Source of the DNA: Caballeronia sp. SBC1
Lineage (GTDB): Bacteria > Pseudomonadota > Gammaproteobacteria > Burkholderiales > Burkholderiaceae
Length of the DNA: 64,000 nt
Assembly (NCBI RefSeq): GCF_011493005.1
Contig: NZ_CP049156.1
Location: 1,240,001 to 1,304,000 of the forward strand
Reading direction: 5' to 3'
Part shown: in pieces, positions 1-52,813 of the stretch
Layout of the letters: the number at the start of each line of letters is the position of its first letter
Numbering within the stretch: position 1 is the stretch's first letter
Translations under genes and position numbers: made by a program
The notes under the pieces: model-generated
Databases searched by the model: none
The model's input: the letters and a program-made list of their open reading frames with translations, nothing else
What the model was told of the DNA's origin: nothing

Positions 1-549
1 CACCTTCTGGAAGTCGTTGGCCGGGCAAACGACTTCAATGCTGCCATCGTCATTCGTGACCACGTCGTCCGCGCCCGCTTCGAGCGCCGCTTCCATCAGC
101 TTGTCTTCGGACGTGCCGGGAGCGAACAGGAACTGGCCGACGTGATCGAACATGAACGCCACCGAGCCGTCCGTGCCCATGTTGCCGCCGAACTTCGAGA
201 ACGCGTGGCGGACTTCCGCAACGGTCCGGGTACGGTTGTCCGTCATGGTGTCCACGATGATCGCCGCGCCACCGATTCCGTAGCCTTCGTAGCGAATTTC
301 TTCATACGTAGCGCCGTCGACACCGCCCACGCCGCGCTGGATCGCGCGGTTGATGTTGTCCTTGGGCATGTTGGCGTCGTAGGCCTTCTCGACGGAGAGC
401 CGCAGGCGCGGGTTCGTGTCCATTTCTCCGCCGCCCATGCGTGCTGCGACCTGGATTTCCTTGATAAGACGCGTCCAGACCTTGCCACGCTTGGCATCGG
501 TCGCCGCTTTCTTATGCTTGATGTTGGCCCATTTTGAATGACCCGCCAT
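1..549 (-). CDS. yebC: YebC/PmpR-family protein (C-terminus outside window)
   Basis: The reverse strand from the ATG at 549 reads [20 protein letters not shown] and continues open to the left edge, giving the first 183 residues of a family usually about 240 long. The N-terminal MAGHSKW...KHKK signature and the following GGG/NPRLRLA-like segment are typical of YebC/TACO1 proteins. Family members act in the cytosol as DNA-binding regulators or as translation factors that relieve ribosome stalling at proline runs; which role applies here cannot be told. The gene is truncated only by the window. Confidence 0.93.
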
Positions 550-4206: not shown

Positions 4207-4209
4207 TCA

Positions 4210-4257
4210 GAGCGTAAGAGCGTAAGAGCGCAAGAGCGCAAGAGCGCAAGAGCGTAA
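4210..4257. repeat. Octamer tandem repeat GAGCGYAA x6
   Basis: Six perfect head-to-tail copies of GAGCGYAA (Y = C or T) begin 3 bases after the qor stop codon. The array is non-coding, is followed directly by GGGGGCGG, and looks like a simple-sequence tract prone to slippage. Confidence 0.9.
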
Positions 4258-4680: not shown

Positions 4681-7545
4681 ATGAATCGCCCAAACCCAGA
4701 CGAGCTGCTCGGAAGACTGCAAAGAGAGGAAGAGAAGCGTCATCGCGGACGGCTGAAGATATTTTTTGGCGCATCGGCGGGGGTGGGCAAGACCTACGCC
4801 ATGCTGCTTGCGGCGCGGGGAAGGAAACAGCAGGGGGACGACGTAGTTATCGGCGTCGTGGAAACGCATGGCAGAAGCGAAACCGCCGCGTTACTGGAAG
4901 ACCTCGAACAACTGCCGTTGGCGAACATCACGTATCGAGGCCATGCGCTCCAGGAATTCGATCTCGACTCAGCGCTTCAGCGCCACCCGCAACTTGTCCT
5001 CGTCGACGAACTCGCCCACTCCAACGTCCCCGGCGCGCGTCATCTGAAACGCTGGCAGGACGTGCATGAACTGCTGGACGCAGGCATTGACGTCTACACC
5101 ACGGTCAATGTCCAGCATCTGGAAAGCTTGAACGACATTGTTGGCCAGATCACGCAGATCCGCGTGTTCGAGACGGTTCCGGATCGCGTGCTGGATCAGG
5201 CCGATGAAGTCACGCTGGTCGATCTTCCGCCCGAGGAACTGCTGGAACGGCTGCGCCATGGCAAGGTCTACCTGCCGCAGCAGGCGGAACATGCCGTCCG
5301 CAATTTCTTTCGCAAAGGCAACCTGATCGCGCTGCGTGAACTGGCGTTGCGGCGCACGGCGGATCGCGTCGATGCCCAGATGCGCGAATACCGCGCGGAT
5401 CGTTCTATCGAGAGAATCTGGCAGGCGCGCGACCGGCTGGTGGTGTGCATTGGGCCGGGACCGGAAGCCCCTACGCTCGCGCGCGCTGCGGCAAGGCTCG
5501 CGGCAAGCCTGCGCTCGGACTGGATCGCGGTCTATGTCGAAACGCCGCAACTGCAAAAACTTTCTGATGCTCGTCGCGAACGCACGCTCGCCGCGCTCAA
5601 GCTCGCCGCTGAACTGGGAGCCGAGACGGTGACGCTGGCCGGTGACGATGCAGTTGCGACGTTGATTGGGTACGCGCAGGCGCGCAACGCGTCGAAACTG
5701 GTGGCAGGCGCGTCGAAACATCGCGGTTTCGCACGATGGCTACAACGGCCGTTCGGCGAGCGCTTGGCAGAGCACGCTGGCGACCTCGACCTCACGCTGA
5801 TTCGAGCGCGGGAGAGCGACCGAAGCGAAGCAAGCGACTCGGGCGATCGGAGCGGATCGTCGTCGCAAGAAGAGGGGCTCGCCCCCGACTGGCACGACGC
5901 GCTGAGCGCCGCGCGCGAGCAGCGCTCGGCGCCGCGGGGCTACGCGTACGCCATTGCGATCTGCGCGGTCATCACGCTGCTCGCGAGCCAGATCCGCAAT
6001 CATTTCGATCTCACGAACCTCGTGATGTTTTATCTGATCGGCGTGATTTACACAGCGGCGCGTATTGGCCGCGGTCCGGGCGTGCTGCTGTCGTTCCTGA
6101 GCGTCGCGGCCTTCGACTTCTTCTTCGTGCCGCCGCGCATGTCGCTGTCCGTCTCCGATACCCAATACCTGCTGACCTTCGCCGGCATGCTGCTGACGTC
6201 GCTGGTGATCAGCCACCTCACATCGAGCTTGCGACGCGAGGCGCGCGTTGCGTCCAAGCGCGAGCGTCGCACCGGGGCGATGTATGCAATGGCTGGCGAA
6301 CTCGGCGCGGCGCTTGGCGTCGAGCAGATCGTGGGTATTGGCATGCGGCACGTAAGCGAAGTATTTCGCGCGAAAGTGGCCCTGCTGCTGCCCGATTCCA
6401 GCGACAAAGTCCGCCAGAAACTCGATCCATCGGATATGTCGGTGGCTGCGCTGCTGCTTGATGCAAGCGCGCTGGATCTCGATGTTGGCCAATGGGTCTA
6501 CGACCAGCAGAAGCCGGCCGGTCACGGAACCGACACGCTGCCTGCTGCCGCCGCGCTTTATCTGCCGCTCAAGGCACCAATGCGCACGCGCGGCGTGCTC
6601 GCGGTGCTCACGCGCAACGCTGGCGAACTCGATGTCCCTGAACAAAAGCGCATGCTCGACGCATTCGCCGCGCAGATCGCGCTGGCGCTCGAACGGGTGC
6701 ATTACGTCGAGATTGCACGCGACGCGCTGGTGAGCATGGAGTCCGAGCGCCTGCGCAATTCTCTGCTGTCCGCCATCTCGCACGATTTGCGCACGCCGCT
6801 TACGACCATTGTCGGTTTTGCATCCATGCTCGCCGAAGCGCACGGTGATGCCCGTTCGCCGGCCAACGCTGAGTTGATCGCGGCAATCCACGATGAATCG
6901 TTGCGCATGACCGGCATTGTCACGAACTTGCTGGACATGGCGCGCTTGCAGGCGGGCGGTCTGCGGCTGAACCGGCAATGGTCGCTCCTTGAAGAGACGG
7001 TCGGCGCGGCGCTGCGGGCGTGCCGGCGCGTTTTGAACGGCCGCCCGGTCGAGGTGCGTCTGCCCGCGGACCTTCCGTTCCTGCAACTCGATGCCGTGCT
7101 GATGGAGCGCCTCTTCTCGAATCTGCTCGAGAACGCTGCGAAATATACGCCGCCGGGCTCGAAGCTCGTCATTGGCGCGGAGAGCCTGAGTATGGATGGC
7201 AAGCCGTTCGCGCGTGTCTATATTGACGATAACGGTCCGGGTTTGCCCGCGAACATGGGAGACCGCGTGTTCGAGAAATTTACGCGCGGCGAGAAGGAGT
7301 CGGCGAAGCCTGGCATTGGGCTCGGGCTCTCGATTTGCCGCGCAATCGTGCAGGCGCACGGCGGTACAATCGGCGCGAATAACCGGCTGGACGGCAGTCT
7401 TCCGGACCCGCAGGTCCAGGGCGCGCGCTTCTGGTTCACCTTGCCCGTGGATGCACCGCCGCCTGTGCCCAGTTTCTCCGACGAAGCCGAACAGGATTTC
7501 GTCGATTTTTCCCCGTCGGACCTTAAGCCCCATGAAGCCCCATGA
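4681..7545 (+). CDS. kdpD: Sensor histidine kinase KdpD
   Basis: A 954-residue membrane sensor kinase of the K+-limitation system, somewhat longer than E. coli KdpD (894). Order of parts: cytosolic KdpD domain with Walker A GASAGVGKT at 30-38 and the LVDELAHSN Walker B; a Usp-like domain about 250-375; an acidic, Ser-rich linker about 380-415; a cluster of four membrane segments about 420-520; a GAF-like region about 540-660; and a kinase core with phospho-accepting His701 in SHDLRTPLTT, an N-box (ENAAKYTPPG) and GxGLGLS. Its stop overlaps the kdpE start by 4 bases. The pump genes kdpFABC are not adjacent. Confidence 0.96.
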   Translation: MNRPNPDELLGRLQREEEKRHRGRLKIFFGASAGVGKTYAMLLAARGRKQQGDDVVIGVVETHGRSETAALLEDLEQLPLANITYRGHALQEFDLDSALQRHPQLVLVDELAHSNVPGARHLKRWQDVHELLDAGIDVYTTVNVQHLESLNDIVGQITQIRVFETVPDRVLDQADEVTLVDLPPEELLERLRHGKVYLPQQAEHAVRNFFRKGNLIALRELALRRTADRVDAQMREYRADRSIERIWQARDRLVVCIGPGPEAPTLARAAARLAASLRSDWIAVYVETPQLQKLSDARRERTLAALKLAAELGAETVTLAGDDAVATLIGYAQARNASKLVAGASKHRGFARWLQRPFGERLAEHAGDLDLTLIRARESDRSEASDSGDRSGSSSQEEGLAPDWHDALSAAREQRSAPRGYAYAIAICAVITLLASQIRNHFDLTNLVMFYLIGVIYTAARIGRGPGVLLSFLSVAAFDFFFVPPRMSLSVSDTQYLLTFAGMLLTSLVISHLTSSLRREARVASKRERRTGAMYAMAGELGAALGVEQIVGIGMRHVSEVFRAKVALLLPDSSDKVRQKLDPSDMSVAALLLDASALDLDVGQWVYDQQKPAGHGTDTLPAAAALYLPLKAPMRTRGVLAVLTRNAGELDVPEQKRMLDAFAAQIALALERVHYVEIARDALVSMESERLRNSLLSAISHDLRTPLTTIVGFASMLAEAHGDARSPANAELIAAIHDESLRMTGIVTNLLDMARLQAGGLRLNRQWSLLEETVGAALRACRRVLNGRPVEVRLPADLPFLQLDAVLMERLFSNLLENAAKYTPPGSKLVIGAESLSMDGKPFARVYIDDNGPGLPANMGDRVFEKFTRGEKESAKPGIGLGLSICRAIVQAHGGTIGANNRLDGSLPDPQVQGARFWFTLPVDAPPPVPSFSDEAEQDFVDFSPSDLKPHEAP

Positions 7546-44549: not shown

Positions 44550-44570
44550 AGGCTTGACGACCAGCAGTAC

Positions 44571-44620
44571 AAAACGGCGGACCGTTTCGGGCAATTCCGG
44601 AGAAACGGTCCGCCGTTTTT
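44571..44620 (+). terminator. Terminator of the EamA gene
   Basis: AAAACGGCGGACCGTTTC (44571-44588), 13-base loop, GAAACGGTCCGCCGTTTT (44602-44619), then TT. An 18-bp perfect stem about 20 bases after the stop; it could work in both directions. Confidence 0.88.
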
Positions 44621-44891
44621 TATGGGTCGGCCGGATAGCCGGGAAAAGATAGACCTTGAGGCTTGCTCTCGTTCGACGCGATGAAACTGGCTATCCACGT
44701 GGCCAACGCCCAAAAGGGCCGGTCGCCACGTCATCGCAGACCGTCTGTGCCAGCATAGTTTTCGTGAAAACCATGCGCGAAAAATCAACGGAATTGACGT
44801 CAATTTACGCCGCGCAACTTCGACTCAGCGTCATCCCGAGGTCTTTGTAGTACAGGATTTGGCTAGGTCTTTGCCCAACTTCATGCTGAGA

Positions 44892-44987
44892 AAAGCATAG
44901 AACTCTAATTATAGTAAAGCATAAAACTCAAATTATAGTACGACACAAAACTCTGGATATAATACGACACAAAACTCTAATTATGGT
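44892..44987. repeat. Four 24-bp direct repeats before the Fic gene
   Basis: Units at 44892-44915, 44916-44939, 44940-44963 and 44964-44987 abut with no spacer. The shared core is ACTC-(T/A)-(A/G)-(A/G)-(T/A)-TATA-like. Units 1-2 begin AAAGCATA, units 3-4 begin ACGACACA. They end in TATAGT, TATAGT, TATAAT and TATGGT, each resembling a -10 hexamer. The array ends 5 bases before the GTG start of the Fic gene and is far more A/T-rich than its surroundings. It is probably promoter and operator in one. Confidence 0.92.
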
Positions 44988-44992
44988 CTGAA

Positions 44993-46624
44993 GTGTCTGG
45001 AGCGAACCGCGTGGCCGCACCCAACGAAAAACTGGCTTCTTCCCTGTCGATCCTCAAAATGCTGCAGGACAGGGGACTTTCCGTATTCCAGATAAGTGCG
45101 CATCCCGAGCTCACCCGCACGCACCGTGAGCGGCTTCAGAATGCCGGTTTCCTGAAATTGGTTATTCAAGGCTGGTATCAGTCGAACAATCCGGACGACG
45201 GGGAGGGGGACTCCACCCATTGGTACGCAAACATGGAAACCTTCGTGGCCGCGTACGCCAACTCCAGGTTTGCAAACCAATGGCAGGTGAGCCCCGAGCT
45301 GTCCCTCCTCAAGCACAGCGGCCACACGAGCATCGAAAAGCAGATCCTGTTGTACTCGCCGCTGGCGACCAACCAGCCCCAGGCATTGCCTCACGGCTGT
45401 TCCATGTTTCTCTACAAGACCAAGCCCGAGATGCTGGTGGACGGCCGTGCGCCGAACGCGAGCGGACTCATGCTGGTTCCTCTTCCCGAAGCGCTGATCC
45501 GGGTCAGTCGTAGCTTCTTCCACACGCACGAGCTTGCCGCGCAGATCGTCACGCGCCAGGTCGATATCAGCACGCTTACCGCCCGATTACTCGAGGGCGG
45601 TCACAGTGTTGTTGCCGGCCGTATGGCGGGGGCGTTGCGGGCCGTCGGCCGGGATCAGGACGCCGACCAGCTCCTCGATACGATGAAAGCGGCGGCCTAC
45701 GTCGTGGCCGAAGATAATCCGTTCGAGCGGCCGCTGGCCCATATTGGCGGCCGGATGAACGAGTCGCCTTACGTGCAGCGCATCCTGGCCATGTGGTCGG
45801 GCATGCGAGACATCGTGATCGACCGCTTCCGTAATATTCCGTGCTCGCCGAACCCCGACAGCGAAGCGCTTCTTCACGACATAGAGGCAAGGTACGTTGC
45901 GGATGCCTACCACTCGCTGTCTATCGAAGGTTATCGGGTCAGCACTGACCTCATTGCGAAGGTTCGCAATGGCGACTGGAGCCCCCTGACCAACAAGGAA
46001 GACCGGCTGACGCGGGATGCCATGGCGGCTAAAGGTTACGCGGAAACCCATGCCCGCGTCCGCTCCCTGATCGGCCGGGTAGTGGCTCAAGCTGACGATC
46101 CTTCTGCCACCCTCAAGCGAGATTTTTCACAGTGGTACGTGACGCTGTTTTCGCCGAGCGTTACCGCAGGTATCCTGAAGGCAAGCGATCTGGCCGGGTA
46201 TCGCAACAACAATGTGTTCATTCGAAATGCGTTGCATGTACCGCTCGCGCCTGAAGCTGTCCGGGATTGCATGCCGGCTCTCTTCGACTTGCTGCAGGCG
46301 GAAGAACACCCGGGCGTGCGAGCGGTATTAGGTCATTTCATCTTCGTGTTTATCCACCCGTACATGGATGGCAATGGCCGCCTCAGCCGCTTTCTCATGA
46401 ACTACCTGCTGACCACGGGAGGCTACCTTTGGACCATCGTGACCGTTCAGTCTCGTACCGCGTATCTGGCGGCGCTGGAGCAGGCCAGCACCTACCGGAA
46501 TATCAAGCCCTTCGCCGATCTGATTGGCGGACTTATCGAATCGCAGGCGGCTGAACCGATCGAGCGCATCACGCAACGTCCCGAGGCCGGAAGCTGGACC
46601 GCTTTACCGTCTGCTTTGGACTGA
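44993..46624 (+). CDS. Fic-domain protein with N-terminal winged-helix-like region
   Basis: A 543-residue protein. The C-terminal Fic domain has HPYMDGNGRLSR from His455, matching HxFx(D/E)GNGRxxR with Tyr for Phe. Upstream, SLSIEG (308-313) matches the inhibitory helix (S/T)xxxE(G/N), so it is a class II Fic enzyme of the self-inhibited type; the usual reaction is AMP transfer from ATP to a protein hydroxyl. Residues about 10-60 (HPELTRTHRERLQNAGFLKL, then GWYQSN) look like an AbiEi-type winged helix. The GTG at 44993 has no strong Shine-Dalgarno. No neighbouring antitoxin; target unknown. Confidence 0.88.
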   Translation: MSGANRVAAPNEKLASSLSILKMLQDRGLSVFQISAHPELTRTHRERLQNAGFLKLVIQGWYQSNNPDDGEGDSTHWYANMETFVAAYANSRFANQWQVSPELSLLKHSGHTSIEKQILLYSPLATNQPQALPHGCSMFLYKTKPEMLVDGRAPNASGLMLVPLPEALIRVSRSFFHTHELAAQIVTRQVDISTLTARLLEGGHSVVAGRMAGALRAVGRDQDADQLLDTMKAAAYVVAEDNPFERPLAHIGGRMNESPYVQRILAMWSGMRDIVIDRFRNIPCSPNPDSEALLHDIEARYVADAYHSLSIEGYRVSTDLIAKVRNGDWSPLTNKEDRLTRDAMAAKGYAETHARVRSLIGRVVAQADDPSATLKRDFSQWYVTLFSPSVTAGILKASDLAGYRNNNVFIRNALHVPLAPEAVRDCMPALFDLLQAEEHPGVRAVLGHFIFVFIHPYMDGNGRLSRFLMNYLLTTGGYLWTIVTVQSRTAYLAALEQASTYRNIKPFADLIGGLIESQAAEPIERITQRPEAGSWTALPSALD

Positions 46625-52683: not shown

Positions 52684-52778
52684 GGGCGGGGGCTCGAGGA
52701 TTCAAGGCATGAAGCGAGCCGCTGATGATACTAAAGACGCCCGGGATTCGCTGACCGTGGCGCCGTCGTGCGTGATGC

Positions 52779-52813
52779 AAGTTACAAGTTACAAGTTACA
52801 AGTTACAAGTTGC
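52779..52813. repeat. Heptamer tandem repeat AAGTTAC x5
   Basis: Five copies of AAGTTAC from 52779, the last being AAGTTGC. It lies between the MFS gene and the lipoprotein gene, in non-coding DNA. Copy number is likely to vary between strains. Confidence 0.9.

What the first reader, a model, noticed from the sequence alone, without database searches (positions are those of the whole stretch)
44892..46624. Solitary Fic gene with a four-unit, 24-bp direct-repeat promoter/operator array
Four abutting 24-bp units end 5 bases before the GTG start, and every unit ends in a -10-like hexamer (TATAGT, TATAGT, TATAAT, TATGGT). The protein joins an AbiEi-like winged-helix segment to a class II Fic domain with an intact catalytic motif and an SLSIEG inhibitory helix. 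The natural reading is a one-gene toxin-like system: the N-terminus binds the repeats and represses its own promoter, the inhibitory helix holds the enzyme off, and no separate antitoxin is needed. That reading is inferred.
Basis: partly seen in the sequence, partly recalled or inferred. Interest (0 to 1): 0.72.

Follow-up and report, generated by a model that had tools for sequence, protein, structure and literature searches.

The report
Self-regulating AbiEi–Fic gene with operator array
A stand-alone bacterial enzyme gene carries its own DNA-binding half and a row of repeated sites in its promoter, and the same layout with the same 24-base spacing precedes its relatives in very different bacteria, which suggests a one-gene, self-controlled, toxin-like switch.

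Summary
The array is a family trait. Of 119 family loci examined, 109 (81 of 89 below 90% identity) have a 23/24-bp self-match upstream that at most 1 of 200 shuffles reaches, in Pseudomonadota and Bacteroidota. Unit sequences diverge; the period does not. Controls: 0 of 30 SoFic-type Fic genes, 0 of 17 AbiEi_4 genes, 7 of 517 neighbouring ORFs. Residues 1-235 are predicted to fold like the whole AbiEi antitoxin. Unit sequence tracks residues 1-150 somewhat better than the Fic domain. No neighbour gene is shared by more than 8 of 78 loci. Two relatives without the gene keep shortened or degraded arrays; one keeps the gene without an array. Best reading: an AbiEi-Fic fusion that represses its own promoter through head-to-tail sites, with the class II inhibitory helix as a second brake. 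DNA binding, repression, AMPylation and toxicity are not shown.

The parts
44892..44915 (+). operator unit 1 of the 24-bp direct-repeat array
   Evidence: read; period-24 self-match
44916..44939 (+). operator unit 2
44940..44963 (+). operator unit 3; ends in TATAAT (44958-44963), the candidate -10 kept in 5 of 5 Caballeronia arrays
   Evidence: conservation read; the consensus scan prefers unit 1 instead (CTGAGA-18-TATAGT)
44964..44987 (+). operator unit 4
44999..45002 (+). GGAG, Shine-Dalgarno-like, 8 bases before GTG 45011
   Evidence: sequence
45011..46624 (+). AbiEi-Fic fusion gene, 537 residues, GTG start (the alternative start 44993 adds 6 residues)
   Evidence: Pfam Fic E 4e-12
45011..45715 (+). 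AbiEi-like region, residues 1-235 (winged helix 1-62, then the AbiEi-type C-terminal part)
   Evidence: predicted structure; fold matches
45116..45145 (+). predicted recognition helix, residues 36-45 (RTHRERLQNA)
   Evidence: secondary structure; R41 is the column most associated with unit sequence
45914..45931 (+). class II inhibitory motif SLSIEG, residues 302-307
46355..46390 (+). catalytic Fic motif HPYMDGNGRLSR, residues 449-460

Best explanation
A one-gene, self-repressing Fic switch. Residues 1-235 are an AbiEi-type DNA-binding module fused to a class II Fic AMP-transferase. Each 24-bp unit is taken to be the site of one AbiEi-like protomer; in most arrays three or four sit head to tail. 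One repeat length (24 bp) nearly equals the distance between the starts of a -35 and a -10 hexamer (23-24 bp), so the row covers the promoter and shuts off the gene. The SLSIEG helix is a second brake that keeps the protein inactive. When the protein is diluted, degraded or sequestered, or the gene enters a new cell, the array is free and expression rises. Shown here: the array, its conservation, its restriction to this architecture among the controls tried, the AbiEi-like predicted fold, the motifs, the lack of a regular partner. Inferred: binding, repression, stoichiometry, toxicity, trigger.
Confidence: 0.72

Rival explanations
1. The array is bound by another regulator (host or plasmid), and the N-terminal region does something else, such as recognising the Fic target or acting as a built-in antitoxin.
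For: The AbiEi-type C-terminal part resembles nucleotidyltransferases (MenT1, TM1012), and AbiEi is an antitoxin as well as a repressor (PMC7319586, passages). Part of the unit-protein association also lies in the Fic domain.
Against: Arrays accompany this fusion on chromosomes and plasmids of distant bacteria and unit sequence follows residues 1-150; a host factor would not move with it. No second array was found in the own genome.
Confidence: 0.12
2. A single-gene anti-phage or anti-plasmid defence of the SoFic kind, in which the array sets expression and the Fic domain causes abortive infection.
For: PADLOC SoFic model matches the Fic half (E 3.3e-21, model positions 58-273 of 361); SoFic is reported to defend by AMPylation (PMC12249575, abstract); patchy occurrence (18 of 398 family genomes; 32 of 369 class genomes), plasmid carriage (79 records), and recombinase or HipA-like neighbours in some loci. 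It does not contradict the best explanation.
Against: No phage data; the SoFic match covers the Fic half only; 0 matches in 50,697 phage records says nothing either way; no regular defence-island partner.
Confidence: 0.35
3. The array is only a drifting tandem duplication that supplies an AT-rich promoter; no protein reads it.
For: One period fits the -35 to -10 distance; arrays are AT-rich; L022 keeps the gene without an array.
Against: Fixed period with diverged unit sequences across two phyla, association with residues 1-150, absence from other Fic and AbiEi genes, and shortened or degraded arrays where the gene is gone.
Confidence: 0.07

Closest known systems
CccR of Yersinia pseudotuberculosis (PMC9755527; abstract and passages)
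   Same: class II Fic enzyme joined to a DNA-binding domain in one polypeptide; represses its own promoter
   Different: DNA-binding domain is a C-terminal HTH; operator is one inverted pair (10 bp, 26-bp spacer, 10 bp). Here an N-terminal AbiEi-like module and mostly 3-4 direct repeats; 0 of 30 PF13784-type genes had such arrays
AbiEi antitoxin / Rv2827c, type IV toxin-antitoxin repressors (PMC7319586; passages)
   Same: two-domain fold over residues 1-235; site length 23 vs 24 bp; several sites overlapping the own promoter
   Different: stand-alone antitoxin paired with a nucleotidyltransferase toxin; sites are inverted pairs. Here fused to Fic, direct repeats, sequence models not met
CbFic2 of Coxiella burnetii (PMC10628234; abstract and passages)
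   Same: class II Fic enzyme with its own DNA-binding domain; precedent that DNA changes Fic activity through dimerisation
   Different: C-terminal HTH, random DNA used in its assays, secreted effector; no operator array described in what I saw
SoFic, single-gene anti-phage Fic (PMC12249575; abstract and outline; PADLOC model)
   Same: Fic core
   Different: Fic_N domain and C-terminal domain, small downstream antitoxin AS1; no AbiEi-like module

Membership tests
Class II Fic enzyme | catalytic Fic motif | tested here: met
   HPYxDGNGRxxR in 63 of 63 aligned members; Pfam Fic 47.3 bits vs cut-off 24
Class II Fic enzyme | inhibitory motif (S/T)xxxE(G/N) N-terminal to the Fic motif in the same chain | tested here: met
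   SLSIEG in the window; S and E in 63 of 63, last position G in 48, R in 11, K in 4
Class II Fic enzyme | AMP transfer to a target, held off by the inhibitory helix | not testable with these tools
   needs biochemistry
AbiEi antitoxin family | two-domain AbiEi fold | tested here: met
AbiEi antitoxin family | match to AbiEi sequence models | tested here: not met
   no AbiEi model above cut-off; AbiEi_4 at E 0.0035-0.011 in one member only; hhalign weak
AbiEi / type IV toxin-antitoxin system | separate AbiEii-type toxin gene beside it | tested here: not met
   no such recurrent neighbour among 543 ORFs near 78 loci
AbiEi / type IV toxin-antitoxin system | inverted 23-bp sites at the promoter | tested here: not met
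   direct repeats of 24 bp; length similar, orientation different
SoFic / CccR architecture | Fic_N (PF13784) domain with C-terminal HTH | tested here: not met
   no PF13784 hit at E <= 1 in the window protein or among 63 members; DNA-binding fold is N-terminal
SoFic / CccR architecture | repression of the own promoter | not testable with these tools
   inferred only
Class I Fic toxin-antitoxin pair (VbhT/VbhA, FicT/FicA) | separate small antitoxin gene carrying the inhibitory helix | tested here: inconclusive
   the motif is in the same chain and no partner of 90 aa or more recurs, but shorter genes were not searched

The most novel reading that the evidence does not exclude
The array is not only an operator but an activity switch: lining up three or four Fic protomers at a fixed 24-bp pitch on DNA holds the enzyme in an off or AMP-removing state, and release from DNA turns it into an AMP transferase, so that promoter occupancy and enzyme state are one variable. 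The fixed period across phyla, while sequence drifts, would then reflect contact between neighbouring protomers. CbFic2, where DNA-induced dimerisation switches AMPylation to deAMPylation (PMC10628234, abstract and passages), is a precedent of the principle.
Probability: 0.15. Interest if true: 0.82.

Novelty: new variant of a known kind. Interest (0 to 1): 0.62.

Why it matters
Fic enzymes with a DNA-binding part have been described one by one; here one promoter architecture accompanies a widespread family in Pseudomonadota and Bacteroidota (109 of 119 loci; 7999 of 8000 scored candidates match at E <= 0.001, though only 120 are listed and weaker ones may share the Fic domain alone). It offers a natural library of matched protein and operator variants for working out AbiEi specificity, and makes it directly testable whether DNA occupancy controls a Fic enzyme. 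It also replaces two-gene toxin-antitoxin control by one fused gene. Searches of the paper library listed no paper that I recognised as describing such arrays; I saw listings and abstract beginnings only for most, and the library lacks most subscription journals.

Tried and rejected
AbiEi by Pfam and profile comparison: not significant; the case rests on predicted fold. The whole-protein fold search listed Fic folds only in its top 50, so the N-terminal part was folded alone. A conserved partner gene: the largest neighbour groups are recombinases (8 of 78 loci), Caballeronia synteny (5 of 78), HipA-like kinases (5 of 78, five different genera) and smaller groups (Pfam names for one example each); none is regular. 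A stand-alone N-domain: 29 hits at E <= 0.001, some annotated as Fic, not checked one by one. Second array in the own genome: not found. Direct repeats before AbiEi_3 genes: 0 of 10 reach 26 of 44, though 3 of 10 have period 24 as their weak best. Consensus promoter scan of the window: 1 site, 0.5 expected. Residues 1-62 alone were associated with the units less than residues 63-150, so I claim 1-150, not the helix alone. The own genome's other Fic gene found (396 aa, L002) has no array (best 24 of 44 at period 34).

Rows dropped and an error: of 128 loci taken for the array count, 9 were not parsed or had no upstream DNA (L081, L086, L117, L128, L130, L136, L141, L169, L171); 119 were counted. 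L003-L012 repeat genomes of L020-L032 or so and were not used; partial or distant matches (L019, L139, L149-L167) were not used. In some searches two loci (L013, L016) were read on the wrong strand and so counted as failures; searches use the right strand (checked). For the association test 98 loci with arrays were cut to 83 (self-match >= 25 of 40, period 24, protein >= 470 aa) and to 63 below 90% identity. For the promoter count 48 loci met the array cut. In one search one partial AbiEi_3 match (L196) was left out.

Full report
OBSERVATION. The four 24-bp units lie at 44892-44987 exactly as described, found independently by TRF. The self-match is 35 of 44 bases at period 24, reached by 0 of 100 dinucleotide shuffles. 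With GGAG at 44999-45002 the likely start is 45011, and the array ends 23 bases before it.

FAMILY-WIDE ARRAY. In the protein collection 7999 of 8000 scored candidates match at E <= 0.001 (120 listed, down to 51% identity). I took 80 loci from named genomes, 6 from family genomes, the window's own gene, 28 from class genomes, 9 from viral contigs and 4 from plasmids: 128 loci, of which 119 could be parsed with upstream DNA. In 109 of 119 a 23- or 24-base self-match is reached by at most 1 of 200 shuffles; after removing proteins at 90% identity or more, 81 of 89. The ten that fail are L022, L035, L037, L045, L058, L066, L073, L074, L111 and L168; by eye some of them (L037, L045, L073, L168) still show two or three related units. 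In 89 loci with clear arrays the unit count is 3 in 45, 4 in 29, 2 in 11 and 5 in 4. Hosts include Beta-, Gamma- and Alphaproteobacteria and Bacteroidota. The family is patchy: 18 of 398 genomes of the family, 32 of 369 of the class, 79 plasmid records, none in 50,697 phage records.

CONTROLS. With one threshold (28 of 44 matches at period 23-24), 53 of 85 Fic upstream regions pass and 7 of 517 other ORFs in the same loci. Two of the 85 (L013, L016) were read on the wrong strand there, which makes 53 an undercount at worst; five of the seven control hits (L013, L044, L067, L069, L093) read the same array from the opposite side. Fic genes of the SoFic type (PF13784): 0 of 30 at that threshold, highest 26 (30 of 44 matches had loci). 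AbiEi_4 genes: 0 of 17, none above 24 at any period from 12 to 40. AbiEi_3 genes: 0 of 10 reach 26. Among what I tried, the array belongs to the fusion, not to Fic or AbiEi genes in general.

WHAT VARIES AND WHAT DOES NOT. Aligned in one register (98 of 109 loci), the units share a frame (consensus agtACAACA.AATAatATAattAT, strongest at one C) with a variable core: CTCTAAT-like in the window's group, TAGTG in many Betaproteobacteria, CCTA or GCTA in many Gammaproteobacteria, TTTAATA or ACTAAA in several Bacteroidota. The period stays at 24, or 23 in a minority. Over 63 loci the distance between unit sequences correlates with that between residues 1-150 (r 0.61) and with the Fic domain (r 0.54). 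Partial correlations are 0.37 (1-150 given Fic) and 0.14 (Fic given 1-150); bootstrap difference 0.225, interval 0.012 to 0.446. In 30-residue windows all 15 that start at residues 1-141 are positive (0.05 to 0.24); those starting at 151-291 lie between -0.20 and 0.11; one Fic window (391-420) reaches 0.21. Against a sharper claim, residues 1-62 alone do worse (partial 0.27) than the Fic domain given them (0.35), although the single best column is R41 in the predicted recognition helix.

ONE GENE. Among 543 ORFs within 4 kb of 78 loci, no neighbour family is regular: recombinases in 8 loci, HipA-like kinases in 5, Caballeronia synteny in 5, smaller groups in 3-4 (Pfam on examples). In the genus the gene sits between an EamA transporter and a histidine kinase (Pfam). 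Six genomes carry it there (G000, G297, G312, G342, G361, G371), and in seven others with both flanks within about 1.1 kb it is absent (G009, G047, G203, G307, G337, G366, G381). Of these, L202 (G366) keeps two units and the beginning of the gene, L204 (G381) a degraded array, and in L206 and L209-L212 BLAST finds no trace. L022 lacks window bases 44623-44995, array and promoter included, with SLSIEG and the catalytic motif intact.

PROMOTER. In proteobacterial loci the best sigma-70-like promoter falls in the array in 41 of 48, with the -10 at one phase in 18 of 41. One repeat length equals the -35 to -10 distance, so neighbouring units can supply both hexamers. AT content and relatedness bias this count. 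In the window the consensus scan prefers unit 1, whereas conservation in five Caballeronia arrays favours unit 3.

MECHANISM. AbiEi is a monomer that binds 23-bp sites overlapping its promoter (PMC7319586, passages). CccR shows that a Fic enzyme with a DNA-binding domain can repress its own promoter (PMC9755527, abstract and passages). Combining these, I read the array as three to four AbiEi-type sites in a row, one protomer each, that close the promoter; the inhibitory helix is a second brake. At 10.5 bp per turn (textbook value), 24 bp turns each protomer by about 103 degrees from the last, so the fixed period looks like butt-joint packing, not same-face alignment (inference). The trigger and the AMPylation target are unknown. 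A defence role of the SoFic kind is compatible with this and untested.

NOVELTY. The parts are known: Fic autorepression (CccR), AbiEi autorepression, DNA control of a Fic enzyme (CbFic2, PMC10628234, abstract and passages). I did not recognise the fusion with a direct-repeat array in the listings. I file it as a new variant of a known kind.

Noticed in passing
L022 (strain S171), junction near 5993-6000: Natural allele without array and promoter: the ribosome-binding region follows directly on the upstream terminator stem, the gene otherwise open with both motifs.
   Followed up: partly
L202 from 2864 and L204 from 2773: Relatives without the gene: two units plus the gene's beginning left in one, a degraded array in the other.
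   Followed up: partly
L060, L061, L069, L080, L083: A HipA-like kinase gene lies within about 3 kb of the Fic gene in 5 of 78 loci from five genera (Pfam on the L060 copy).
   Followed up: partly
alignment A1, residues 302-307: The inhibitory motif ends in R or K instead of G in 15 of 63 members; the ones I saw are Bacteroidota. Effect on autoinhibition unknown.
   Followed up: no
L168, Bacteroides thetaiotaomicron plasmid p5482, BT_RS24275: A member on a plasmid of a common laboratory strain, with about two visible 24-bp units and a sub-threshold array score.
   Followed up: no
L169, Agrobacterium plasmid pAt1D1460: The annotated Fic gene begins 72 bases before the aligned protein start, possibly a misplaced start running into the upstream region.
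   Followed up: no
L172, L177: By eye, inverted rather than direct repeats precede some stand-alone AbiEi_4 genes.
   Followed up: no
window 4209-4254 and 52778-52811: Short tandem arrays, AGAGCGCA x 5.8 and CAAGTTA x 4.9, with 97% and 100% matches.
   Followed up: no
window 44568-44622: Inverted repeat with 21-nt arms, 95% complementary, ending in a T run: probably the terminator of the upstream EamA gene, which would insulate the Fic gene.
   Followed up: no
own genome, for example G000:C1:2527464 and 3453312: One identical 21-mer (ACACCCATCTCTAAGTATGCT) occurs five times in the genome as a 3-mismatch match to the unit pattern; probably an unrelated dispersed element.
   Followed up: no
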